Positions 2,255-43,078 of a DNA stretch of 64,000 nucleotides are shown piece after piece. Each line of letters starts with the position of its first letter. Position 1 is the stretch's first letter. This DNA is from Sphingopyxis sp. 113P3 (GTDB lineage: Bacteria; Pseudomonadota; Alphaproteobacteria; Sphingomonadales; Sphingomonadaceae): positions 715,501-779,500 of the forward strand of contig NZ_CP009452.1 in the NCBI RefSeq assembly GCF_001278035.1, written 5' to 3'. The translations under genes were made by a program, and so were the position numbers. The notes under the pieces were generated by a model. That model saw only the letters and a program-made list of their open reading frames with translations. It had not been told where the DNA came from and searched no databases.

Positions 2255-3829
2255 TTATGGCGCGAGAAGGTCGGCCGGCAGCGTGGGCTCGCTAAGAATC
2301 AACGTCATTCGCCGCCAGCTTTCGTCGCGGTCGGGACCGCCGCGCTCGACATAGGCGCGCACCATCTCCTCGCCGATCCCGTAGTTGATCACATAGCTGC
2401 GATACTGGTCGGTAAAGGCGACCGACTGTTCGGCGCGCTTGGGCGAGACGAGGAGATATTTCTGTGTCAGCGCGACGGCGGTCGGTCGGTCGATCACGCC
2501 GTCGAGATATTGCTGTGCGATGGTGAGGCGCGCGCCCTGCAGCGTTTTCAGCGCATCGTTGAGCTTCCAGTAGCGATCATCACCCGGCGGGGCGATGCCC
2601 GCGAGCGGCATCAGCACGTCGCGCTCGGTGTCGGGACGCGTATTGTCGGGGAAGGCGAGGTCGATGCCGTAATTGGCGCTCCCCTCGGCGATCAGGCTTT
2701 GCGGGCTGTAAAGCGGGTAGACGCTGAACTCGGTCCAGCCGCGCGCCTTCACCAGCTGCTCCTCCAGCTTCATGTTGAGAAGGTGATGGCCGGGATAGCC
2801 CTCGTGGCAACCGAGGTCGAGCGCACGCGACAGGCGGATCGGAAGGTCGGTATTGACCTGGATGATGCTGTGGTAGCCCCCCTGGTAGTAATTATAACCG
2901 CTCCAGCTCTTGCCGGTCACGAATTGCAGGTCGAAGCTCTCCTGCTCAGGCATCGTGACATGGGCGGCGGTGCGGCCGCGGCAGCGTGCGATCGCGGCGT
3001 CGAACACGGGCTTCAGCTTGTCTTTCGGGATGGTGAAGCGGTCGAGAAAGGTCTCCACCCGCGCCGCGAGCGGGCCATCGCCCGGGACGAGCGCCTCGAC
3101 CGCGACAAGCTGCGCGTCATAGCTTGCAAGCGGCTTCAGTTCGGGCCGCACGCCAAACAGGCGTTCGGCTTCCTCGATGAAGGGAAAGCGCGTCCCCTCC
3201 ATCATCATCAATCGCGTCTCGGCGGCCCGAAGCTGCGCGCGAAGGAAGGCGGCGCGGCGCCGTTCGATGGGATCGGAAAGGTCGGGCGTGGCCGCGTCGA
3301 GCTTGGCCATCAGCTGCCGAGCGGCCAAAAGCAGTGTCGGCTTGTCGCGCGGCGCCTTCGTCGCGGCCTCGAGGAGGCTCGGCGGGCCATAATAGGCGTC
3401 GATGTACCCCCGCTCGTGGGTCCCGATTTCGAGGGTAAGGAGCACATAGGCGGATGCGATCGCATCGACCGCCTGCGCCGCATACATGGCCGCTGTGGGG
3501 TCGGCGGGGGCGGTGGGAGCGGGCCATGCGTTCGCATCCGGGGTGCGAGCGGCCGTCGGCGCGGCGGGCGCATTGGGTGCCGGCAAATCGGTCACGCCGG
3601 ACAGTATCTCCATCCGGCTCACGTCGATGGCGGGCAACTCGGCGCCCACCTTGGCGGGCGAGCCTGGCTCTTCAGGATGAAGGGCAGGAGCAGACGAGCG
3701 AGGAGTGGGAGCGTCTTTTTCCTGCGCCTTTCGCTCGGCAACGACGCGCTTCATTTCAGGATCGAGTGCGTAGCAGCCCGACAGGGCCGCGCTGGAGACG
3801 AGCAGCATGAGGATGAGGGGGTTGCGCAT
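2255..3829 (-). CDS. DUF885 family lipoprotein (putative metallopeptidase-like)
   Basis: A 524-residue DUF885 protein. The lipobox LSGC places the lipidated Cys at residue 19 of MRNPLILMLLVSSAALSGC, so it should be anchored in the envelope. A Pro/Ala-rich linker follows, then the DUF885 domain with the hallmark LGCHEGYPGHHLLNMKLEE, an HExxxxHH arrangement resembling a zinc-peptidase helix. Family members are often called hydrolases or peptidases without firm proof. The start ATG overlaps the nhaA stop as TGATG (3831-3827), so translation is probably coupled to nhaA. The frame continues open upstream inside nhaA, but the signal sequence fixes this start. Confidence 0.88.
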   Translation of the reverse strand: MRNPLILMLLVSSAALSGCYALDPEMKRVVAERKAQEKDAPTPRSSAPALHPEEPGSPAKVGAELPAIDVSRMEILSGVTDLPAPNAPAAPTAARTPDANAWPAPTAPADPTAAMYAAQAVDAIASAYVLLTLEIGTHERGYIDAYYGPPSLLEAATKAPRDKPTLLLAARQLMAKLDAATPDLSDPIERRRAAFLRAQLRAAETRLMMMEGTRFPFIEEAERLFGVRPELKPLASYDAQLVAVEALVPGDGPLAARVETFLDRFTIPKDKLKPVFDAAIARCRGRTAAHVTMPEQESFDLQFVTGKSWSGYNYYQGGYHSIIQVNTDLPIRLSRALDLGCHEGYPGHHLLNMKLEEQLVKARGWTEFSVYPLYSPQSLIAEGSANYGIDLAFPDNTRPDTERDVLMPLAGIAPPGDDRYWKLNDALKTLQGARLTIAQQYLDGVIDRPTAVALTQKYLLVSPKRAEQSVAFTDQYRSYVINYGIGEEMVRAYVERGGPDRDESWRRMTLILSEPTLPADLLAP

Positions 3830-5115
3830 CAGACCGGCACGGCTCCTTTTGTTTCCGACGTGTCGCGGACATCGCCGTCGGTGTCGATCTCGGCCGCGCT
3901 GTCGGCCTCGATCGCGGCATGATCGGGATGCGGCGGCGCGAAGCGGAGGACTGCAAATCCTGCGAGCGCCGCAATGAGCGATCCCATCAGGATGCCGATC
4001 TTGGCTTCTTCTATCAGCAAGGCGTTGCCCGGGAAAGCGAGGCTCCCGATGAAAAGGCTCATCGTAAAGCCAATTCCGCATAGCAGCGCAACGCCGTAGA
4101 CCTGGAGCCAGGTCGCGCCGCGCAGCCGCCCGGCAATGCCGAAGCGAACCGACAGCCAGACACTCCCGAAAATGCCGATCTGCTTGCCCAGAAACAGGCC
4201 CGCAGCGATGCCGAGCGGGAGCGGAGCGAAGGCCTGATCTGCGGTGAGCCCGCCGAGGTCGACCCCGGCGTTCGCAAAGCCGAACAGCGGCACGATTGCG
4301 AAAGCGACCCAGGGGTGAAGCGCATGTTCGAGCCGGTGCAGCGGTGACGTCGCGCTGTCGGGTGCGCCCGGTGTACTCTCGAACGGGATGGCCATCGCCG
4401 CGAGCACCCCGGCGATCGTCGCATGGACCCCGGACAAGAGCATCGCATACCAGAGAAGCACAAACATCAGCAGGTAGAGGCTCAAACGCTTCACGCCTGC
4501 ACGATTGAGCGCAAACAAGATCCCGAGCAGCACCGCTGCGGCGGCGAGCGCGGCGAGGTCGATCTTTGCGGTGTAGAAAAGGGCGATGATCGCAACCGCC
4601 CCCATGTCGTCGACGATCGCGACGGTGACGAGGAAGAGCTTGAGCGATGTGGGCGCGCGCTTGCCGAGCAGGGCGAGAACGCCGATCGCAAAGGCAATGT
4701 CCGTCGCTGCCGGGATCGCCCAGCCTTGGGCGAGCCCCGGCTCGCGCCCGGCGAACAGGGTATAGAGGATTGCGGGCACCACCATCCCCGCTGCCGCCGC
4801 GATCATCGGCAGCCGCCGCCGGTCCCAGCTGGCGAGCCGGCCATCGACGAACTCGCGTTTGATTTCGAGGCCAACGAGCAGGAAGAAGACCGCCATCAAC
4901 CCGTCGTTGATCCACAAATGCACCGTCATCGGGCCGAGCTTCTCGGTCAGTGTCGGGCCGGTCACCGCATGGATGGTGTCATGATAGACCGTACCGAGGG
5001 AGGAGTTGGCAACGATCATTGCCAGCGCCGCCGCGAGGATCAGCAATATTCCCCCGGCGCTCTCGCTTTCGAGGAAGCCGCGCAGTGCGGAGCGAGGGAC
5101 GGAGCGGGGAGCCAT
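3829..5115 (-). CDS. nhaA: Na+/H+ antiporter NhaA
   Basis: A 428-residue inner-membrane sodium/proton antiporter that exports Na+ in exchange for protons and supports pH and salt homeostasis. NhaA signatures are clear: ALAMIVANSSL, LWINDGLMAVFFLLVGLEIK, ATDIAFAIGVLALLG and IVDDMGAVAIIALFYT, whose paired Asp residues match the ion-binding D163/D164 of E. coli NhaA. About 11-12 hydrophobic segments are visible. The open frame extends to 5181, but ATG 5115 is preceded by AGGA in ACAGGATATCACC and starts the conserved region. The last base of its stop is the first base of the downstream DUF885 start. Confidence 0.96.
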   Translation of the reverse strand: MAPRSVPRSALRGFLESESAGGILLILAAALAMIVANSSLGTVYHDTIHAVTGPTLTEKLGPMTVHLWINDGLMAVFFLLVGLEIKREFVDGRLASWDRRRLPMIAAAAGMVVPAILYTLFAGREPGLAQGWAIPAATDIAFAIGVLALLGKRAPTSLKLFLVTVAIVDDMGAVAIIALFYTAKIDLAALAAAAVLLGILFALNRAGVKRLSLYLLMFVLLWYAMLLSGVHATIAGVLAAMAIPFESTPGAPDSATSPLHRLEHALHPWVAFAIVPLFGFANAGVDLGGLTADQAFAPLPLGIAAGLFLGKQIGIFGSVWLSVRFGIAGRLRGATWLQVYGVALLCGIGFTMSLFIGSLAFPGNALLIEEAKIGILMGSLIAALAGFAVLRFAPPHPDHAAIEADSAAEIDTDGDVRDTSETKGAVPV

Positions 5116-5343
5116 AAGGTGATATCCTGTCAAAAGCTGTATTTTTTGAAGTCTAGTAGCGAGCGTTTCGCAGTTCGTCACCCTCGAGCGGCTGCGGCTG
5201 ATGCCGGAACGGCCCCCTTGCAGCGCAGGCCCGCCTTCTGATGGCGCCGCGCGACACAGCCGATTCCCCGGCTCTGAAAAATCGTCTAGGGTTTGCGGAA
5301 TCGGCGCCGCCCGGGCGCCCGTCTCACGCTTCGGGGCCTGTCC

Positions 5344-6252
5344 TTGGATCTCTATCTTCCTGTCGCCAACCTGTCGGTCAACGCGCTGGTCATCATCCTC
5401 CTGGGAGGCGGGGTCGGCTTTCTGTCGGGCATGTTCGGTGTAGGCGGCGGCTTTCTGACCACGCCGCTGCTGATCTTCTACGGTATACCTCCCACAGTCG
5501 CAGCGGCGTCGGCCGCGACGCAGGTGACAGGCGCCAGCGTGTCGGGAACCCTGGCCTATCTCGAGCGGGACGGGGTCGACCTGCGCATGGGGGCAGTGCT
5601 CGTTGCAGGCGGCCTCATCGGATCGCTCATCGGCGCGGGGCTCTTCGAGCTGCTGACTGCCTGGGGCCAGATTGATACCGTCATTTCGATACTTTATGTC
5701 GTGCTCCTGGGATCGGTCGGCACGATCATGGGGCGCGAGGCGTGGGGGTCACTGCGCGCGATGAAGGCCGGAATGCCCCCGCCTCCGCGCAAGCGCCGCC
5801 ATCATCCGATGGTCGCGAATCTGCCGCTGCGCTGGCGTTTCTATCGCTCGGGTCTTTATATCTCGCCGCTCGCCCCGCTGCTGCTGGGCATGGGGGTCGG
5901 CGTGCTCACGATGCTGCTTGGCGTGGGCGGCGGTTTCATCATGGTTCCCGCGATGGTGTACCTGCTCGGCATGGGGACGCAGGTCGTCGTCGGCACCTCG
6001 CTGTTTCAGATCCTGTTCGTGACGATCGCCACGACGATGGTGCACTCGATGACAACAGGTGCTGTCGATATCGTGCTTGCGGGCCTCCTCTTGCTCGGGA
6101 GCGTGACCGGAGCGCAGGTGGGCGCGCGCTTTGCCCAGTCGGTGCGACCGGAATATCTGCGGTTGCTGCTCGCGGGGATCGTGCTCCTTGTCGCACTGCG
6201 CATGGGGGTGGACCTCTTCATTCGCCCCGATGAAATCTACACCGTACAATGA
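5344..6252 (+). CDS. TauE/SafE family anion (sulfite/sulfonate) exporter
   Basis: A roughly 302-residue membrane permease of the TauE/SafE family, proposed for export of sulfite or organosulfonates. Two homologous halves are visible, each with the glycine-rich signature: GVGFLSGMFGVGGGFLTTP in the N-terminal half and GVGVLTMLLGVGGGFIMVPA in the C-terminal half. I chose the TTG at 5344 because residues LDLYLPVANLSVNALV after it look like the family start; an upstream ATG at 5293 is also in frame. Its stop overlaps the next gene as ATGA (6249-6252). TauE genes next to TIGR02186 genes recur in alphaproteobacteria. Confidence 0.88.
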   Translation: MDLYLPVANLSVNALVIILLGGGVGFLSGMFGVGGGFLTTPLLIFYGIPPTVAAASAATQVTGASVSGTLAYLERDGVDLRMGAVLVAGGLIGSLIGAGLFELLTAWGQIDTVISILYVVLLGSVGTIMGREAWGSLRAMKAGMPPPPRKRRHHPMVANLPLRWRFYRSGLYISPLAPLLLGMGVGVLTMLLGVGGGFIMVPAMVYLLGMGTQVVVGTSLFQILFVTIATTMVHSMTTGAVDIVLAGLLLLGSVTGAQVGARFAQSVRPEYLRLLLAGIVLLVALRMGVDLFIRPDEIYTVQ

Positions 6253-7022
6253 CGCGCGCGTTCGCCTTGCTGCTGGGGCTCGCCGCGGCGCTCCTGCCTC
6301 TGAACGCCGCGCAGGCGGCCGACCCCCGGCTGGTCCCCGACGTTTCCAACCGCGCGATCGATATCCAGTACAGCTTCACGGGGGAGGAACTCCTCTTGTT
6401 CGGCGCGATCCTCTATCCTGGTCAGCGCCTTCCCGACGACCGCGCCGACATTGTCGTGGTGCTGAAGGGCCCCGTGCGCCCGATCGTGCTGCGTGAAAAG
6501 CAGCGCGTGGCAGGCATCTGGGTGAATGCCAGCAGCATTCGCCTGCGCACCTCGCCCGGCTTTTATGCAATCGGTTCGTCACGGCCGATCGACAAGCTGG
6601 TCGATGAGCGGACCGCCGCGATCTTCGAGCTCGGGCTCAGCAACCTGTCGATGTCGCCAACGGGCTTTTCGGAAGCGAAAAAGCTTGAACGGTTCGAAAA
6701 TGGGCTGATCGACCTCTATCGGCGGCTTGGTCTTTTTTATGAGGATCCCAGCGCGGTGGAAATCCGGGAAGGCGTGCTCTACCGCGCGCGGATTCCGGTG
6801 CCGGCGCGCGTTCCGGTGGGCAATTACCGCGCTGAAACCTATTTGATCAGCAAGGGCCGGGTCATTGCGGTTGCCTCGCGCGACGTCGAGATCCGCAAGG
6901 CTGGATTCGAACGCTTTGTCGCGCTCGCGGCGCAGCGGCACGGCTTCCTCTACGGTCTGACGGCGGTGCTCCTGTCGCTGACGCTCGGCTATGGCGCTTC
7001 GGCGATTTTCCGGCGGCGCTGA
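6249..7022 (+). CDS. TIGR02186 family membrane-anchored periplasmic protein
   Basis: A 257-residue protein with a signal peptide (MTRAFALLLGLAAALLPLNAAQA, cleaved after AQA) and one C-terminal membrane helix (FLYGLTAVLLSLTLGYGASA) before a basic FRRR tail, so most of it faces the periplasm. The sequence matches the TIGR02186 family, proteins of unknown function coded beside TauE-type permeases. The four-base ATGA overlap with the permease implies translational coupling and joint function, probably as an accessory subunit for anion export. No catalytic residues are obvious. Confidence 0.85.
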   Translation: MTRAFALLLGLAAALLPLNAAQAADPRLVPDVSNRAIDIQYSFTGEELLLFGAILYPGQRLPDDRADIVVVLKGPVRPIVLREKQRVAGIWVNASSIRLRTSPGFYAIGSSRPIDKLVDERTAAIFELGLSNLSMSPTGFSEAKKLERFENGLIDLYRRLGLFYEDPSAVEIREGVLYRARIPVPARVPVGNYRAETYLISKGRVIAVASRDVEIRKAGFERFVALAAQRHGFLYGLTAVLLSLTLGYGASAIFRRR

Positions 7023-7048
7023 CCCTTGGCAGCATAAGCGCTTTTTTT
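7016..7048 (+). terminator. Probable intrinsic terminator after the TIGR02186 gene
   Basis: GCGCT (7016-7020, overlapping the stop codon) pairs with AGCGC (7037-7041), with an inner GCTG/CAGC helix, and is followed by seven T residues (7042-7048). It would separate the exporter pair from the herA-like gene. Confidence 0.5.
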
Positions 7049-7098
7049 ACCAACAGGTGCGATACCGTTTCTCGAACGGACGACAGGCGGGGCACCAA

Positions 7099-8811
7099 AT
7101 GGATATGCAGAGCGGCGCGTTCAGCGCGAGCGACCAGACAGCTGCGCAGACGGTGCGCCTTGCGGGCGGCGGAACCGCCGCGCCGCTCTCGGCGGTAACC
7201 GCGCATCACCGCGATGAACTGTTGATCGGCGAAGTGATCGAGATCGCGGGGTCGGCCTCGCGCATCATCCTCGACGCAGCAGCGCTCGAGCGGCTCACCG
7301 GTTCGGGCGATCCTGCGGTGGCGATGGCGGGCCAGGTCGGCGCGCAGGTCAAGGTGCGCGTGGGCAATGTGTGGCTTCTGGCCAGCATTCGGGACCAGCA
7401 CCTCCACGAGGGCGAGCGGGGTGTCATCATCGCGTCGGTCGATTTCCTCGGCGAAGGTGACGAGGAGAAGCTCACCGGTCGCATCCACAATTTCCGCCGC
7501 GGCGTCACCCGCTATCCGGTGCCGGGCAGCGAGGTTTATGCGGCGACGAGCGCCGACCTCAAGCAGATCTACGCCGCCGACGAGCGCGCGCATGTCGAGA
7601 TCGGGACCGTTTATCCGACGCGGGATATCCGGGGATCGCTCTATGTCGATGCCATGCTTGGCAAGCATTTCGCTCTGCTTGGATCGACAGGTACCGGCAA
7701 GTCGACGAGCGCGGCGCTGATTCTTCACCGGATCTGCGAACTCGCGCCGCAAGGTCATATCGTGATGATCGACCCGCACGGCGAATATTCGGCGGCCTTC
7801 AAGGGCACGGGGGCCCTTTTCGACGTCGACAATCTCGCCATGCCCTATTGGCTGATGAACTTCGAGGAGCACTGCGAAGTCTTCATCACCAGCGAGGGGC
7901 GCGAGCGGCAGGGGGATTGCGACGTGCTTGCCAAATGCCTTCTCCAGGCGCGGCAGAAAAACCGCATGGCCGAGGGCATGACCAAGCTCACGGTCGACTC
8001 TCCCATTCCCTATCTTCTCTCGGACTTGCTCAACATCCTGCAGAATGAAATGGGCAAGCTCGACAAGGCGACCTCGAGCGCGCCCTTCATGCGGATCAAG
8101 GGCAAGATCGAGGAGATGCGGGCCGACCCGCGCTATAATTTCATGTTCTCGGGCATGCTCGTCGCCGACACCATGGCGGCCTTCATCGGCAAGATTTTCC
8201 GCCTGCCATCGGACGGCCGGCCCATCTCGATCATCGACGTATCGGGGGTGCCCTCGGACATCACCGGCGTCGTGGTCGCGGTGCTGTCGCGCCTGACTTT
8301 CGACTATGCCATCTGGTCGCGTGGCGAGCCGCAGCGCCCGATCCTCCTCGTGTGCGAAGAAGCGCATCGTTACATTCCGGCAAAAGACGTCGGCCAGGGA
8401 CAGGCGGTGCGCAAGATTCTCGAGCGGATCGCCAAGGAGGGCCGTAAATATGGTGTGTCGCTGGGGCTCATTACCCAGCGCCCGTCCGACCTTGCCGAGG
8501 GTGTACTCTCGCAGTGCGGCACGATCATTTCGATGCGCCTCAACAACGAACGCGACCAGCAATTCGTCAAGGCCGCGATGCCCGAGGGCGCGCGCGGCTT
8601 CATCGATTCGATCCCGGCGCTGCGCAACCGCGAATGTATTGTCTGCGGCGAGGGCGTCTCGATCCCGATCCGCGTCTATCTCGATACGCTTGAAGAGGAC
8701 AAGCGTCCGGCATCGAGCGACCCGCTCTTCTCCAAATTGTGGCGCGAGACGGGCGGCGAGGTCGAAATCCTCGACCGCGTGGTGAGGCGCTGGCGCAGCC
8801 AGGGGCGCTGA
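7099..8811 (+). CDS. HerA-like ATPase (DUF87)
   Basis: A 570-residue HerA/FtsK-superfamily ATPase. An N-terminal HAS-barrel-like region (about 35-150) precedes the ATPase core, with Walker A GSTGTGKS at 195-202 and a Walker B-type LLVCEEAHRYIP. A C-terminal arginine/sensor region includes RMNNERDQQF-like residues (RLNNERDQQF). HerA proteins form hexamers that pump DNA, in archaea with the NurA nuclease; no nuclease gene lies beside it here. The frame is open from 6991, but ATG 7099 follows AGGCGGGG and starts the conserved part. It is a stand-alone gene between a terminator and a convergent VOC gene. Confidence 0.88.
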   Translation: MDMQSGAFSASDQTAAQTVRLAGGGTAAPLSAVTAHHRDELLIGEVIEIAGSASRIILDAAALERLTGSGDPAVAMAGQVGAQVKVRVGNVWLLASIRDQHLHEGERGVIIASVDFLGEGDEEKLTGRIHNFRRGVTRYPVPGSEVYAATSADLKQIYAADERAHVEIGTVYPTRDIRGSLYVDAMLGKHFALLGSTGTGKSTSAALILHRICELAPQGHIVMIDPHGEYSAAFKGTGALFDVDNLAMPYWLMNFEEHCEVFITSEGRERQGDCDVLAKCLLQARQKNRMAEGMTKLTVDSPIPYLLSDLLNILQNEMGKLDKATSSAPFMRIKGKIEEMRADPRYNFMFSGMLVADTMAAFIGKIFRLPSDGRPISIIDVSGVPSDITGVVVAVLSRLTFDYAIWSRGEPQRPILLVCEEAHRYIPAKDVGQGQAVRKILERIAKEGRKYGVSLGLITQRPSDLAEGVLSQCGTIISMRLNNERDQQFVKAAMPEGARGFIDSIPALRNRECIVCGEGVSIPIRVYLDTLEEDKRPASSDPLFSKLWRETGGEVEILDRVVRRWRSQGR

Positions 8812-38951: not shown

Positions 38952-38967
38952 GATGCACTGCAGCATC
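38952..38967. repeat. Imperfect palindrome upstream of the Anbu operon promoter
   Basis: GATGC (38952-38956) and GCATC (38963-38967) flank ACTGCA; the core TGCACTGCAGCA resembles PhaR-type operators recalled from other alphaproteobacteria. It abuts the -35 box. Confidence 0.35.
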
Positions 38968-38995
38968 TTGCCTTCCCGCGCCGCGGTGCTAGCAT
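38968..38995 (+). promoter_or_regulatory. Putative Anbu operon promoter
   Basis: TTGCCT (38968-38973), 16-base spacer, TAGCAT (38990-38995). It lies 30 bases upstream of the GTG chosen for the ATP-grasp gene. Confidence 0.4.
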
Positions 38996-39025
38996 CGCTC
39001 TTGCTGCTTGACCGGCGGCTGTGGG

Positions 39026-40459
39026 GTGGAAAGGGCTGGCTTCATTCGCTTCTTCGACGAAATGACGAACCAGGAGGGCGGGATCAGGGCGCCCTATCGT
39101 GAATATTGCCAATGGTTCGACGGCGAAGATGCGGCGCGGATCGCGCAGAAGGCAAAGCAGGCCGAGGCTTTTTTCCGCACCATCGGCATCACCTTCAACG
39201 TGTATGGCGCCGAAGGCGGCGACGAGCGCCTCATCCCCTTCGACGTGGTGCCCCGGATCATCGCTGCGGGCGAATGGCGCCGCTTGTCGCGCGGCATCGA
39301 ACAGCGGGTGCGTGCGCTCAACGCCTTCCTTCACGACATTTATCACCGGCAGGAGATCCTGCGCGCCGGGCGCGTGCCCACCGAGCTCATCGCCCGCAAC
39401 GACGCTTTTCTGCCGATGATGATGGGCATGGATCCGCCCGGCGGCGTCTATACGCACATCAGCGGCATCGATATCGTTCGCACCGGTCCGGACGAGTTTT
39501 ACGTGCTTGAGGATAATGCCCGCACACCCTCGGGCGTCTCTTACATGCTCGAAAATCGCGAGACGATGCTGCAGATGTTCCCTGAGCTCTTCGCCAAAGT
39601 GCCGGTGCGCGAGGTCGGCGACTATCCGATCAACCTGTTGAAGTCGCTATCGGCCTGTGCGCCGCCGATGTGCGGCGGCACGCCGACGGTGGCGGTGCTC
39701 ACCCCAGGCATTCACAACAGTGCCTATTTCGAGCACAGCTTTCTTGCAGACCAGATGGGCGCCGAACTCGTCGAAGGGCATGACCTGCGCGTCGTCGGGG
39801 GACGCATCGCCATGCGGACGACGCGAGGCTACCGGCCGATCGATGTCCTTTATCGCCGCGTCGATGACGATTTCCTCGACCCGCTGAACTTCCGTTCCGA
39901 CTCGCTGCTTGGGGTGCCCGGCATCTGGGACGTCTATCGCGCAGGAGGCATCACCATCGCCAATGCGCCGGGAACCGGCATTGCGGATGACAAGGCGCTC
40001 TACAGCTACATGCCCGACATCATCGAATTTTATACCGGCGAGAAGGCGCTGCTTCCCAATGTGCCGACCTGGCGGTGCAGCGAGCCTGAACATTTGCGCG
40101 AGGTTCTCGACCGATTGCCCGAACTGGTGGTCAAGGAGGTGCACGGATCTGGCGGTTACGGCATGCTCGTAGGTCCGGCGGCGAGCAAGAAGGAGATCGC
40201 AGCCTTCCGCGCCAAGCTCGAGGCCAATCCTCGAAATTATATCGCGCAGCCAACGCTGTCCCTCTCGACCGTGCCGATTTTCACAAAGAAAGGCCTCGCG
40301 CCGCGCCATGTCGACCTTCGCCCCTTTGTCCTGATGTCTCCGCAGGGGATCACGATCACACCCGGCGGCCTGACCCGCGTCGCGATGACCAAGGGATCCC
40401 TCGTCGTCAATTCGAGCCAGGGTGGCGGGACCAAGGATACATGGGTTCTGGAGGATTGA
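39026..40459 (+). CDS. Circularly permuted type 2 ATP-grasp protein (Anbu operon)
   Basis: About 477 residues of the CP_ATPgrasp (DUF404/DUF407) family, predicted to join amino acids or peptides through an acyl-phosphate. Family marks are FFDEM near the N-terminus, ERLIPFDVVPRIIAAGEW, EFYVLEDNARTPSGVSYMLE, PGIHNSAYFEHSFLADQMGA, ELVVKEVHGSGGYGMLVGP and the C-terminal VDLRPFVLM. The start is uncertain: TTG 39008, GTG 39026 and ATG 39062 are in frame; GTG keeps the conserved FFDEM. It heads the four-gene operon with alpha-E, transglutaminase and Anbu. Confidence 0.9.
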   Translation: MERAGFIRFFDEMTNQEGGIRAPYREYCQWFDGEDAARIAQKAKQAEAFFRTIGITFNVYGAEGGDERLIPFDVVPRIIAAGEWRRLSRGIEQRVRALNAFLHDIYHRQEILRAGRVPTELIARNDAFLPMMMGMDPPGGVYTHISGIDIVRTGPDEFYVLEDNARTPSGVSYMLENRETMLQMFPELFAKVPVREVGDYPINLLKSLSACAPPMCGGTPTVAVLTPGIHNSAYFEHSFLADQMGAELVEGHDLRVVGGRIAMRTTRGYRPIDVLYRRVDDDFLDPLNFRSDSLLGVPGIWDVYRAGGITIANAPGTGIADDKALYSYMPDIIEFYTGEKALLPNVPTWRCSEPEHLREVLDRLPELVVKEVHGSGGYGMLVGPAASKKEIAAFRAKLEANPRNYIAQPTLSLSTVPIFTKKGLAPRHVDLRPFVLMSPQGITITPGGLTRVAMTKGSLVVNSSQGGGTKDTWVLED

Positions 40460-40502
40460 TGGGCGCGCATTTTCTCTTGCCTGCCTGTCGAGGCGAACCT
40501 GG

Positions 40503-41444
40503 ATGCTAGGAAAGACCGCCGGCAGCCTCTTCTGGATGGCGCGTTATCTCGAGCGCAGCGAGAATAATGCGCGCCTCATCGATGCAGGGTTTCGTATCGC
40601 GCTCACCCGGTCGGCGACCGCGCCCGCCGAGTGGAAGTCGGTGCTCGAAACCGCCGGGGTTGTGGATGCCTACAAGGCAGCCAATGCCGAGTTCACCTCG
40701 GCGCGCGTCGTCGATTTTCTGCTCCGCGATCCCGCCAATCCGTCGAGCATCCTCTCGATCGTCAAGCAGGCGCGCGACAATGCGCGCACCGCTCGCACGC
40801 ATCTCACGCGCGAGATGTGGGAGGCGGTGAACACCGGCTGGATGACGCTCGTTGCGCTGCTGAAGCGGCCGGTGCGCGAAGATGATCTGCCCGACGTGCT
40901 CGCAACGATCCGGCGGCAGAATGGCCAGGTGCGCGGCGCGCTGACGGGGACGATGCTGCGCAACGACGGGTTCGACTTTGCAGAGCTTGGTACCTTTCTG
41001 GAGCGCGCCGACAACACGGCGCGCATCCTCGACGTCAAATATTATCTGCTGCTGCCCTCGGTCGCACATATCGGCTCGTCGATCGACAATGTGCAGTGGG
41101 AGACAATCCTGCGCTCGGTCTCGGCGCTGCGCGCCTATCGCTGGCTCTACGGGGCAGAGATCAGTGCGCTCAAGATCGCCGAATTCCTGATCCTTTACGC
41201 GCAGATGCCGCGAAGCCTCGCCTTTTGCTGCGAGCGGATGGCGGAACATCTCGGGCGAATCCAGCATCTCTATGGCGAGGAAACCGAGGCAGGTCGGATG
41301 GCGACGGCGCTGTGCAGCAATCGGCTCGCGGGACCGATCCAGTCGATCTTCGACGGGGGTCTGCACGAATATCTGCGCGGCTTCCTGACCGCCAACGCCG
41401 CGCTCGCGCGGCAGGTCGAGCTTGATTACCGGTTCGTGGAGTGA
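40503..41444 (+). CDS. Alpha-E domain protein (DUF403; Anbu operon)
   Basis: A 313-residue, almost entirely alpha-helical protein. The N-terminus LGKTAGSLFWMARYLERSEN is the alpha-E signature; later FLERADNTARILDVKYYLLL and APRSL-like LYAQMPRSLAFC follow. Its biochemical role is unsettled; comparative genomics groups it with permuted ATP-grasp ligases in predicted peptide synthesis. ATG 40503 is preferred because GAGGCGAACCTGG is upstream and the motif follows at once; the open frame back to 40422 overlaps the ATP-grasp gene. Its stop overlaps the transglutaminase GTG. Confidence 0.92.
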   Translation: MLGKTAGSLFWMARYLERSENNARLIDAGFRIALTRSATAPAEWKSVLETAGVVDAYKAANAEFTSARVVDFLLRDPANPSSILSIVKQARDNARTARTHLTREMWEAVNTGWMTLVALLKRPVREDDLPDVLATIRRQNGQVRGALTGTMLRNDGFDFAELGTFLERADNTARILDVKYYLLLPSVAHIGSSIDNVQWETILRSVSALRAYRWLYGAEISALKIAEFLILYAQMPRSLAFCCERMAEHLGRIQHLYGEETEAGRMATALCSNRLAGPIQSIFDGGLHEYLRGFLTANAALARQVELDYRFVE

Positions 41445-42256
41445 GCAGCCCCATGCGCCTTTCCGTCGAACATGTCACGCGCTACCAATATGACGCGCCG
41501 GTCCGCTACGCGCTCCAGCAGGCGCGGCTGACAGCCAAGGACCGGCCAGGTCAGCAGCGCGTCGACCATTGGACGGTAGAGGTCGAGGGCGGCGAAACCC
41601 AGCTTCATTACACCGACCATCATGGCAACGGCGTCGATCTGATCGCGGTGGACAGCGGTGCGAGCGAGCTCGTCATCCGCAGCCGCGGCGAGGTGGAACT
41701 GCTGACCTTTGACGGGATCATTGGCGAACATCGCGGCGCGATGCCGCTCTGGACCTTCCTGCGTCCCACGTCGCTGACGCGCGCGGGTCGGCAGGTCCGA
41801 GCACTAACATCCGCGCTCGGGCGCGATTTCACCGCGGATATCGAACGTGCGCACGCGCTCTCGGTGCTGATCCTCGAGCGGCTTCCTTACAAGATCGGCG
41901 TGACCGATGCCGATACAACCGCCGAACAGGCGCTGGCGGGTGAGGGCGGTGTGTGTCAGGATCATGCGCACATCTTCATCGCTGCGATGCGGCATCTCGG
42001 GCACCCCGCGCGCTATGTGTCGGGTTATCTGATGATGAACGACCGCACCCAGCAGGATGCGACGCACGCCTGGGCAGAGGCCTATTTCGACCATATCGGC
42101 TGGATCGGCTTTGACGTCAGCAACGGCCATTCGCCCGACCAGCGCTATATCCGCGTGGCGACCGGGTTCGACTATCAGGATGCCGCGCCGGTTCGTGGCA
42201 TGCGCTATGGTGCAGCGCAGGAAAATCTGGTTGTTCAATTACAGGTCCAGCAATAA
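41441..42256 (+). CDS. Transglutaminase-like cysteine protease (Anbu operon)
   Basis: A 271-residue transglutaminase-fold protein with the bacterial N-terminal domain (MRLSVEHVTRYQYDAPVRYA). The triad is visible: Cys172 in GEGGVCQDHAHIF, His209 in QDATHAWAEAYF and Asp225 in GFDVSNGHSPDQRY. Such proteins may hydrolyse or transfer amide bonds of peptides. GTG 41441 overlaps the alpha-E stop (GTGA); ATG 41453 is an alternative. It is third of four genes in the operon. Confidence 0.93.
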   Translation: MSSPMRLSVEHVTRYQYDAPVRYALQQARLTAKDRPGQQRVDHWTVEVEGGETQLHYTDHHGNGVDLIAVDSGASELVIRSRGEVELLTFDGIIGEHRGAMPLWTFLRPTSLTRAGRQVRALTSALGRDFTADIERAHALSVLILERLPYKIGVTDADTTAEQALAGEGGVCQDHAHIFIAAMRHLGHPARYVSGYLMMNDRTQQDATHAWAEAYFDHIGWIGFDVSNGHSPDQRYIRVATGFDYQDAAPVRGMRYGAAQENLVVQLQVQQ

Positions 42257-42297
42257 GCGGGGATCGGGATCGCACAGGGGCCGGGGAAGAAGGATCG

Positions 42298-43029
42298 ATG
42301 ACCTATTGCGTCGGAATGCGCCTCAACAAGGGGCTGGTGTTCATGTCGGACACCCGCACCAATGCCGGCGTCGACGACATCTCGCAGGTCCGCAAGATGC
42401 GCAGCTGGCACGTGCCCGGAGAGCGCGTCATCACGTTGATGTCCGCGGGCAATCTTGCGACGACGCAGGCGGTCGTCGGCCTTCTCGACGAGCGGAACAA
42501 GGCACCCGCAGACCGCCACCCCTCGATCCTTTCTGCGCCATCGATGTTTGCGGTGGCGATGACGATCGGCGAAACGCTTCGCTCTATCGTCACGCGCTAT
42601 CGCACCGAAGGGCCGATGGCCGAATCCATCTTCCGGGCCTCGCTCATCGTCGGCGGCCAGATCAAGGGATCGGAGCCCCGCCTGTTCATGATCTATCCTG
42701 AGGGTAATTTCATCGAAGCGGGCGAGGACAATCCTTTTTTTCAGATCGGCGAGACCAAATATGGACGGCCGATCATCGTGCGCTCTTATGATCCTGCGAT
42801 GTCGTTTGAGGATGCGGTCAAGCTCCTGTGCGTCTCGTTCGATTCGACGATCCGCGCCAATGCCGGCGTTGACCTGCCCATCGATCTGAAAGTGCACGAA
42901 CGCGACGATTTCACAACCGTTCGCGAACGGCGCTTCGAGCGTCACGACTCCTATTTTCAGAGCGTCGCCGATGGCTGGGCCGAAGCCCTGGGCATCGCGC
43001 TAGCGGAGCTGCCCGACTTCCAGTTCTGA
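42298..43029 (+). CDS. Proteasome-like peptidase Anbu
   Basis: A 243-residue Ntn-hydrolase of the Anbu (ancestral beta subunit) family, related to HslV and proteasome beta subunits. The start MTYCVGMRLNKGLVFMSDTR places Thr2 as the N-terminal nucleophile after Met removal; Asp18 and Lys33 correspond closely to proteasome Asp17 and Lys33, and LMSAGNLATTQAVV is the usual core. Anbu proteins form ring or helical assemblies without a known ATPase partner, and none is coded here. It lies 41 bases after the transglutaminase and ends before a strong terminator. Confidence 0.93.
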   Translation: MTYCVGMRLNKGLVFMSDTRTNAGVDDISQVRKMRSWHVPGERVITLMSAGNLATTQAVVGLLDERNKAPADRHPSILSAPSMFAVAMTIGETLRSIVTRYRTEGPMAESIFRASLIVGGQIKGSEPRLFMIYPEGNFIEAGEDNPFFQIGETKYGRPIIVRSYDPAMSFEDAVKLLCVSFDSTIRANAGVDLPIDLKVHERDDFTTVRERRFERHDSYFQSVADGWAEALGIALAELPDFQF

Positions 43030-43051: not shown

Positions 43052-43078
43052 GCCCGGAAGGTCGGTGACCTTCCGGGC
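43052..43078. terminator. Bidirectional terminator between Anbu and acsA
   Basis: GCCCGGAAGGTC (43052-43063) and GACCTTCCGGGC (43067-43078) form a perfect 12-bp stem with loop GGT. On the minus strand it is followed by TTTT, so it should best end the acsA transcript; it also lies 22 bases after the Anbu stop. Confidence 0.8.

What the first reader, a model, noticed from the sequence alone, without database searches (positions are those of the whole stretch)
38952..43029. Complete Anbu operon: permuted ATP-grasp, alpha-E, transglutaminase and proteasome-like peptidase
Four genes in fixed order, two with overlapping ends, with their own promoter-like sequence and a strong terminator. The pairing of a predicted peptide-bond-forming pair (ATP-grasp plus alpha-E) with two peptide-cleaving folds (transglutaminase, Anbu) has been noted by comparative genomics, but its substrate and product are still unknown. 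All catalytic residues seen here (Thr2; Cys172/His209/Asp225) are intact, so the system should work. It could make, then trim or recycle, a small peptide or peptide tag.
Basis: partly seen in the sequence, partly recalled or inferred. Interest (0 to 1): 0.75.

Follow-up and report, generated by a model that had tools for sequence, protein, structure and literature searches.

The report
Intact Anbu ligase-and-hydrolase operon
A bacterium, probably a Sphingopyxis, carries a complete copy of a known four-gene set that pairs a likely amide-bond-making enzyme with a proteasome-like enzyme; the set is already described and its product is unknown, but a two-gene version in ocean bacteria hints at which two parts form its core.

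Summary
The operon is real and intact: permuted ATP-grasp, Alpha-E, transglutaminase-like protein and Anbu in the published order. It is a new member of a known kind. Corrections: no promoter consensus upstream; the end hairpin lacks a U-tract; genes overlap only if GTG starts are chosen. Added here: (1) in 289 class genomes Anbu comes with the ATP-grasp in 80 of 81, while 29 genomes have ATP-grasp and Alpha-E without detected Anbu; (2) Pelagibacteraceae carry a two-gene version, divergent ATP-grasp and Anbu, with no Alpha-E or Bact_transglu_N detected in 41 genomes; (3) fused ATP-grasp-Alpha-E paralogues have lost catalytic-type residues that standalone ones keep; (4) Alpha-E is an internal duplication; (5) sigma-54 sites precede ATP-grasp genes in seven other families, not here; (6) in Sphingopyxis the first gene probably starts at ATT/ATC. 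Best reading: a synthetase/hydrolase couple that makes and unmakes an amide conjugate, linked to nitrogen supply in other bacteria. Substrate, product and Anbu activity remain unknown.

The parts
39044..40459 (+). Circularly permuted ATP-grasp ligase (first in-frame ATG of the conserved body at 39062; likely start ATT at 39044, giving M-RFFDEM...)
   Evidence: Pfam CP_ATPgrasp_2 543 bits; 3n6x E 8e-188; E150, N152, K311, K358, G364-G367, D418, N450 (numbered from ATG 39062) present in 53 or 54 of 54 standalone sequences, window included
39028..39034 (+). Shine-Dalgarno-like GGAAAGG, 9 nt before ATT 39044
   Evidence: exact GGAAAGG 7-9 nt before ATT/ATC in 38 of 40 Sphingopyxis-group sequences, window included
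40503..41444 (+). Alpha-E protein (313 aa), helical
   Evidence: Pfam Alpha-E 295.5 bits; AlphaFold2 pLDDT 89.9, pTM 0.89, helices only
40503..40961 (+). Alpha-E repeat unit 1 (residues 1-153) with ERSENNARLID at 17-27
   Evidence: profile-profile match to unit 2, E 3.8e-9; reversed control 0.2, eight column shuffles 0.014-0.48
40962..41441 (+). Alpha-E repeat unit 2 (residues 154-313) with ERADNTARILD at 167-177
   Evidence: as above
41453..42256 (+). Transglutaminase-like (papain-like) protein, Cys168/His205/Asp221
   Evidence: Transglut_core 79.1 and Bact_transglu_N 67.6 bits; triad complete in 47 of 50 aligned sequences, window included
42298..43029 (+). Anbu, proteasome-like Ntn hydrolase, Thr1/Asp17/Lys32 after Met removal
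   Evidence: five PDB sequences, E 4.5e-57 to 2.6e-78; triad in 43 of 43 aligned sequences, window included
43052..43078 (+). Perfect 12-bp hairpin after the operon, no U-tract; possible terminator between convergent genes
   Evidence: a stem of 9 bp or more in 10 of 40 genus sequences

Best explanation
This is an intact-looking member of the known Anbu operon. Most likely it works as a synthetase/hydrolase couple. The ATP-grasp ligase activates a carboxylate as acyl phosphate and joins it to an amine (a peptide or peptide-amine conjugate, as structural relatives such as glutathione synthetase, glutathionylspermidine synthetase and YgiC/YjfC do). Alpha-E is a duplicated helical partner of the ligase in most lineages, probably for substrate delivery or control. 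The transglutaminase-like protein and Anbu act on the product, Anbu being its dedicated amide hydrolase rather than a general protease. Shown here by sequence: catalytic-type residues kept, near-constant ATP-grasp/Alpha-E adjacency, co-occurrence of Anbu with the ATP-grasp, and a two-gene ligase/Anbu form in Pelagibacteraceae. Inferred: the ligation chemistry, the direction of each step, Alpha-E's role and the substrate. A link to nitrogen supply is reported by others for Pseudomonas and Burkholderia, suggested here by sigma-54 sites in other families, and not shown for Sphingopyxis.
Against: No substrate or product is known. In the published assays Anbu cleaved none of the tested peptides and no stable complex among operon proteins was found. 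ATP-grasp, Alpha-E and Bact_transglu_N occur without detected Anbu in 28 genomes, so Anbu is not needed everywhere to undo the product. G425 keeps an open Anbu frame with the three partners missing from the locus. 35 of 87 Anbu hits are not within 15 kb of an Alpha-E on their contig. PP_2685 (Anbu) rose only 1.12-fold in the wild type in PMC7801951, and in the same table PP_2686-2688 still rose 14.2- to 19.6-fold in the third column, which is the rpoN mutant if the column order is that printed for Table 1; this speaks against simple sigma-54 dependence in P. putida. No site in any of the 23 regions from the window's family. The ligase assignment rests on residues and fold; the fold search used a degenerate fused relative, not the window protein.
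Confidence: 0.45

Rival explanations
1. Protein tagging and degradation: ATP-grasp and Alpha-E attach a peptide tag to proteins and Anbu destroys the tagged proteins or removes the tag, in the manner of pupylation.
For: Proposed in print (PMC6376114, passages); a likely ligase beside a proteasome fold.
Against: No tag gene seen: intergenic gaps of 43, 8 and 41 nt leave no room in the operon, and no conserved extra neighbour of 70 aa or more was found. None of the four genes is an AAA+ protein. Two tested neighbours of the two-gene version are present in only 7 and 11 of 39 loci. Published Anbu showed no peptidase activity.
Confidence: 0.15
2. Nitrogen-starvation proteolysis: Anbu is a general peptidase that recycles amino acids, and the other genes are co-regulated but unrelated in chemistry.
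For: N-limitation induction in Pseudomonas.
Against: Anbu co-occurs with the ATP-grasp (80 of 81) and pairs with it alone in Pelagibacteraceae; no activity on proteasome peptides.
Confidence: 0.12
3. Anbu is a transferase or ligase, like the proteasome homologue connectase, and acts with the ATP-grasp in synthesis instead of reversing it.
For: Connectase shows that a proteasome fold can ligate (PMC8665760, passages); hydrolysis was not detected for Anbu; the two are paired in the minimal version.
Against: No direct evidence; Anbu was not detected in 29 genomes that have ATP-grasp and Alpha-E.
Confidence: 0.13
4. A biosynthetic set for a small secreted or storage peptide in which the transglutaminase-like protein is the main processing enzyme and Anbu an optional trimming step.
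For: 28 genomes have ATP-grasp, Alpha-E and Bact_transglu_N without detected Anbu; the fold relative Cp1B makes part of a peptide-type natural product (PMC12568646, passages).
Against: The minimal version keeps Anbu, not the transglutaminase; three of 50 aligned sequences have lost the transglutaminase Cys.
Confidence: 0.15

Closest known systems
Published Anbu operon (Valas and Bourne 2008 and Iyer et al. 2009, both known here only as cited; Fuchs et al. 2017 PMC5666114 and Piasecka et al. PMC6376114, passages)
   Same: Same four families in the same order; Anbu triad conserved.
   Different: Nothing in gene content. Points particular to this copy: probable ATT/ATC start of the first gene and no sigma-54 site found.
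Pseudomonas putida PP_2685-PP_2688 (PMC7801951, PMC3325844, passages)
   Same: Described there as one operon; PP_2685 is said to resemble the 20S proteasome beta subunit and PP_2686 is a transglutaminase-domain protein. That PP_2687 and PP_2688 are Alpha-E and ATP-grasp is my inference.
   Different: N-limitation induction is reported there; nothing is known for the window operon, whose genome does have rpoN.
Burkholderia cenocepacia I35_5080-5083 (PMC5491218, passages)
   Same: ATP-grasp (DUF404/DUF407), Alpha-E (DUF403) and transglutaminase-like genes together.
   Different: A large transglutaminase-domain protein stands in the cluster; the word proteasome does not occur in that paper.
Bifunctional glutathionylspermidine synthetase/amidase (GspSA) and E. 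coli YgiC/YjfC
   Different: Here separate proteins, plus Alpha-E and an Ntn hydrolase; substrate unknown.
HslV and 20S proteasome
   Same: Ntn-hydrolase beta-subunit fold and Thr/Asp/Lys residues.
   Different: The sequence is much closer to Anbu chains. The genome has a separate, higher-scoring Proteasome-family gene at C1:1909219 that I take to be HslV (not verified further); none of the four operon genes is an AAA+ protein.

Membership tests
Anbu | Sequence homology to solved Anbu proteins above that to other proteasome-like families | tested here: met
   Only five PDB sequences at E 0.01 or better: 5loy, 5nyj, 5nyf named Anbu, 5lox and 5nyw named Peptidase (5LOX is given as Anbu in PMC8665760; 5nyw as Anbu is recalled)
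Anbu | N-terminal Thr, Asp17, Lys32/33 | tested here: met
   Thr1, Asp17, Lys32
Anbu | Open-ring (split-ring or lock-washer) assembly | not testable with these tools
   needs structure or electron microscopy
Anbu operon | Order ATP-grasp, Alpha-E, transglutaminase-like, Anbu on one strand | tested here: met
Anbu operon | Single transcript | not testable with these tools
   gaps of 43, 8 and 41 nt are compatible; no RNA data
Circularly permuted ATP-grasp | CP_ATPgrasp profile and catalytic-type residues | tested here: met
   543 and 475 bits; residues conserved in standalone sequences; their assignment to metal/ATP binding is recalled
Alpha-E | Pfam profile with ER motif | tested here: met
   295.5 bits; two ER motifs
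Bacterial transglutaminase-like family | Bact_transglu_N plus core with Cys-His-Asp | tested here: met
GspSA (synthetase/amidase) | Amidase and synthetase in one chain | tested here: not met
   separate genes; works-like claim only
GspSA / peptidyl-polyamine synthetase | Ligation of a peptide carboxylate to a polyamine | not testable with these tools
   no substrate data
Self-compartmentalising protease with AAA+ partner | Linked AAA+ unfoldase | tested here: not met
   none among the four operon genes; none seen by inspection among the recurrent neighbour families

The most novel reading that the evidence does not exclude
The functional core of the Anbu system is a two-enzyme switch, an ATP-grasp ligase and Anbu as the dedicated hydrolase of its product, which survives alone as a divergent gene pair in streamlined ocean Pelagibacteraceae; Alpha-E and the transglutaminase are accessory, and the conjugate serves as a nitrogen-responsive amide store or signal. 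If so, the best-known candidate for a proteasome ancestor is a metabolite amidase, not a protease.
Probability: 0.3. Interest if true: 0.82.

Novelty: new member of a known kind. Interest (0 to 1): 0.5.

Why it matters
Anbu is discussed as an evolutionary intermediate on the way to the proteasome, yet no substrate is known. The Pelagibacteraceae pair reduces the problem to two proteins that can be assayed together, the loss of catalytic-type residues in fused paralogues helps to tell likely active from likely inactive ligases, and nitrogen limitation is a condition under which the product might be sought. If the product is a small conjugate, ideas on how the proteasome fold began would change.

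Tried and rejected
Small substrate or precursor gene: not found. Neighbour clustering over 58 sequences (window and 57 fetched loci that hold an ATP-grasp) gave no conserved extra gene; the most widespread extra family was in 9 loci (uvrB-like by its sequence, a recalled label), and clusters 3 and 4 are minus-strand ORFs lying over operon genes. The ORF caller was mechanical, with a 70-aa limit, so shorter genes outside the operon gaps were not tested.

The 306-aa ORF beside the Pelagibacteraceae Anbu as a hidden Alpha-E: rejected (hhalign E 0.16; best Pfam match DUF6088 at E 0.11, below its cut-off; present in 7 of 39 loci). Sigma-54 control of the window operon: not supported. Literature leads that proved to be other systems: Caulobacter hvyA, Rlo operon, inactive transglutaminase of vesicle mutants. 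Fisher P 1e-44 for Anbu with ATP-grasp ignores phylogeny and is not used as a probability.

'No Anbu' in the class means no hit of the window's single Anbu sequence at E 1e-5, less sensitive than the profile searches for the other families. Loci were picked from the top of the hit lists; of the 20 class loci, 17 have all four genes and 3 (L089, L090, L099) lack the transglutaminase at the locus. The 20 fused sequences include one gene twice (P0121 and L101), so 19 distinct. The match lists were cut at the end; the 106 ATP-grasp hits are the standalone ones copied by hand from the visible part, without two partial ones (G231, G127). The sigma-54 control is a first-order Markov resample, not an exact shuffle; start positions of L161-L200 are approximate; three of the 14 sites are identical in one genus, and two (G043, G230) precede ATP-grasp genes of genomes without detected Anbu. 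The 41 genomes and the 39 loci overlap, and one search finds close relatives only. No search was made for prior reports of the Alpha-E duplication, of the degenerate fused paralogue or of the ATT start; for the Pelagibacteraceae pair one search listed five papers, none on it by title. Iyer et al. 2009 could not be read, so some of these points may be in it.

Full report
CHECK OF THE OBSERVATION. The window (G000:C1:715501-779500) holds four plus-strand genes: ATP-grasp, Alpha-E, transglutaminase-like protein and Anbu, with Pfam scores of 543, 295.5, 79.1/67.6 and 34.5 bits. NCBIfam gave no family at E 0.01 for the first three and only weak ones below their cut-offs for Anbu. Anbu matches the PDB chains 5loy, 5nyj, 5nyf, 5nyw and 5lox; the ATP-grasp matches 3n6x over residues 4-465; Alpha-E has no relative in the PDB by sequence (best E 0.63); the transglutaminase matches 3isr weakly. 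The genome has one hit each for Alpha-E, CP_ATPgrasp_2 and Bact_transglu_N and a second Proteasome-family gene that I take to be HslV. Several source names among the nearest Alpha-E proteins are Sphingopyxis, so the genus is very likely Sphingopyxis.

CONSERVATION. In 60 genus genomes Anbu is found in 57; of 41 fetched genus loci 39 have all four genes. The misses are L160 (cut at a contig end, without the ATP-grasp) and L159 (G425), where Anbu directly follows a long ORF that I read as secA (label recalled); in L154 the same ORF and Anbu are about 3.6 kb apart with the other three genes between. ATP-grasp, Alpha-E and transglutaminase are missing from the L159 locus. In 119 family genomes Anbu is found in 98. 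In 289 class genomes: Anbu 81, Alpha-E 107, ATP-grasp 110, Bact_transglu_N 108. Anbu genomes hold ATP-grasp in 80 of 81 (missing: G255, 63% complete), Alpha-E in 78 (missing: G147, whose ATP-grasp is cut at a contig end; G255; G259), Bact_transglu_N in 79 (missing: G185, G259), all four in 77; 29 genomes have ATP-grasp and Alpha-E without detected Anbu, 28 of them with Bact_transglu_N. Of 87 Anbu hits, 52 lie within 15 kb of an Alpha-E, 51 of these downstream on the same strand; 35 do not, 30 of them having no Alpha-E on the same contig. After 104 of 106 standalone ATP-grasp hits from the visible table an Alpha-E starts within 600 nt. So ATP-grasp and Alpha-E are the near-constant pair, and Anbu goes with the ATP-grasp.

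A TWO-GENE VERSION. G259, one of the exceptions, led to a lineage of 0.9-1.4 Mb genomes. Of 41 genomes, Anbu was found in 30 (one match, in G494, holds a stop), ATP-grasp in 29 (27 over the whole profile), both in 28, Alpha-E in 0 and Bact_transglu_N in 0 at E 0.001. Many of the genomes are incomplete (10 of 41 at least 90% complete and at most 5% contaminated, 7 of these with the pair), so absence rests on the set, not on single genomes. A scan of named genomes gave 39 loci titled uncultured Alphaproteobacteria or Pelagibacteraceae bacterium (lineage of one looked up). In 37 of 39 both genes are present, 37 of 37 divergent, start-to-start distance 106-107 nt; L242 starts at a contig end, and L240 has an Anbu match without its first 12 residues and no ATP-grasp. 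Two tested neighbours occur in 7 and 11 of 39, so the pair itself is the conserved unit. ATP-grasp motifs match in 34 of 36 near-full-length copies; L243 and L244 differ at single motif positions. No ER-motif pattern is encoded in the 39 loci. A hidden Alpha-E in a neighbouring 306-aa ORF was tested and rejected.

INTACT AND DEGENERATE LIGASES. Aligning 54 standalone with 20 fused ATP-grasps (19 distinct), E150, N152, K311, G364, G367, D418 and N450 are present in 54 of 54 standalone and 0 of 20 fused; K358 in 54 and 9; Y366 in 53 and 0. That these are metal- and ATP-binding positions is recalled from glutathionylspermidine synthetase, not tested. The window enzyme is of the intact type. In L109 a fused gene follows a 1151-aa protein whose start resembles the window's transglutaminase (25% identity).

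ALPHA-E. The window protein is predicted with confidence (pLDDT 89.9, pTM 0.89) as helices only. Residues 1-153 and 154-313 are homologous: profile-profile E 3.8e-9, probability 96%; reversed 0.2; eight column shuffles 0.014 to 0.48. Each half has an ER motif, ERSENNARLID and ERADNTARILD; E17, R18, R24, R98, E167 and R168 are the same in 54 of 54 aligned sequences, window included. A duplicated charged site suits a partner that holds an anionic or zwitterionic substrate; this is inference.

REGULATION. Published: P. putida PP_2686-2688 rise 12.6-, 11.0- and 14.7-fold in the first column under nitrogen limitation, next to urtABCD, with PP_2685 (Anbu) at 1.12-fold (PMC7801951, passages); Table 1 of that paper is ordered wild type, relA/spoT, rpoN, and if Table 2 is too, PP_2686-2688 still rise 14.2- to 19.6-fold in the rpoN mutant, which speaks against simple sigma-54 control there. 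In PMC3325844 PP2685-2687 rise 11.1-, 6.6- and 7.1-fold, N- against C-limited (passages). The Burkholderia cluster depends on NtrC and sigma-54 (PMC5491218, passages); COG3484 appears in a predicted sigma-54 set (PMC12316311, passage); Alpha-E, ATP-grasp and Bact_transglu_N domains go with urea-metabolism domains in marine metagenomes (PMC3597751, passages). [quoted passage not shown] putida (passages). Here: sites with at most one mismatch to TGGCAC-N5-TTGC and intact GG/GC number 14 on the plus strand of 94 regions before ATP-grasp genes (7 exact), against a mean of 1.2 and a maximum of 4 in 200 resamples; the minus strand has 1. They fall in seven families (f33, f37, f39, f43, f56, f70, f126; handles), two of these (f43, f126) through genomes without detected Anbu, and in none of the 23 regions from the window's family, although the genome has rpoN. 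So nitrogen control may be common but is not shown for this operon, and its route may differ between lineages.

START CODON. In 40 of 40 Sphingopyxis-group sequences (window and 39 relatives) the codon just before the (V)FFDEM N-terminus with its one variable residue is ATT (37) or ATC (3), with GGAAAGG 7-9 nt upstream in 38; because the spacing is mostly 8 or 9 nt the upstream frame is not kept. In 38 of 40 an in-frame ATG, GTG or TTG does exist further upstream, often 18-24 nt before, at or ahead of the GGAAAGG; in L121 and L144 there is none before a stop. Outgroups in the family use TTG or GTG near that place, or an ATG further upstream (by inspection). ATT/ATC initiation, as known for infC (recalled), is the simplest reading; start at the ATG of FFDEM, or at an upstream codon where one exists, are the alternatives. 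The 40 sequences are related and count as few independent events.

READING. The parts fit a ligase whose product is undone by Anbu, with Alpha-E and the transglutaminase as accessories in most lineages. This is parallel to glutathionylspermidine synthetase/amidase in logic, not in membership. Published Anbu assays were negative with proteasome peptides (PMC6376114, passages), which would be expected if the true substrate is the ligase product. Against it stand the 29 genomes without detected Anbu, G425, the unlinked Anbu copies, and the lack of any identified product. The finding is ordinary as a gene set and useful as a lead.

Noticed in passing
window 39028-39064; L061, L121-L158: First gene of the operon seems to start at a conserved non-canonical ATT (37 of 40) or ATC (3 of 40) codon with GGAAAGG 7-9 nt upstream in 38 of 40; in 38 of 40 an in-frame standard start codon also exists further upstream.
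   Followed up: partly
L202 5099-7375; L207-L245: Two-gene Anbu version in Pelagibacteraceae: divergent ATP-grasp and Anbu, start-to-start distance 106-107 nt in 37 of 37, no Alpha-E or Bact_transglu_N detected in 41 genomes.
   Followed up: yes
L159 (G425) 3710-7232: Sphingopyxis relative with an open Anbu frame directly after a secA-like gene; ATP-grasp, Alpha-E and transglutaminase missing from the locus; rest of the genome not searched.
   Followed up: partly
L101 6025-8523 and P0121-P0360: Natural ATP-grasp-Alpha-E fusions; in the 20 aligned, the ATP-grasp has lost catalytic-type residues, apparently pseudo-ligases.
   Followed up: yes
L093, L096, L100, L108, L161-L163, L169, L172, L173, L184, L188, L189, L194: Sigma-54-like -24/-12 sites before the ATP-grasp gene in seven other families.
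   Followed up: yes
L093, L102, L108: Transglutaminase-like proteins whose catalytic Cys is Tyr, Gly or Ser.
   Followed up: no
L089, L090, L099: Loci in which Anbu directly follows Alpha-E with no transglutaminase match between.
   Followed up: no
L122, L132, L150, L157 downstream of Anbu: Recurring palindrome CCCCTCCCG..CGGGAGGGG after the operon, perhaps a repeated terminator-like element.
   Followed up: no
L240: Pelagibacteraceae locus with an Anbu match lacking its first 12 residues and no ATP-grasp beside it, possibly a decaying copy.
   Followed up: no
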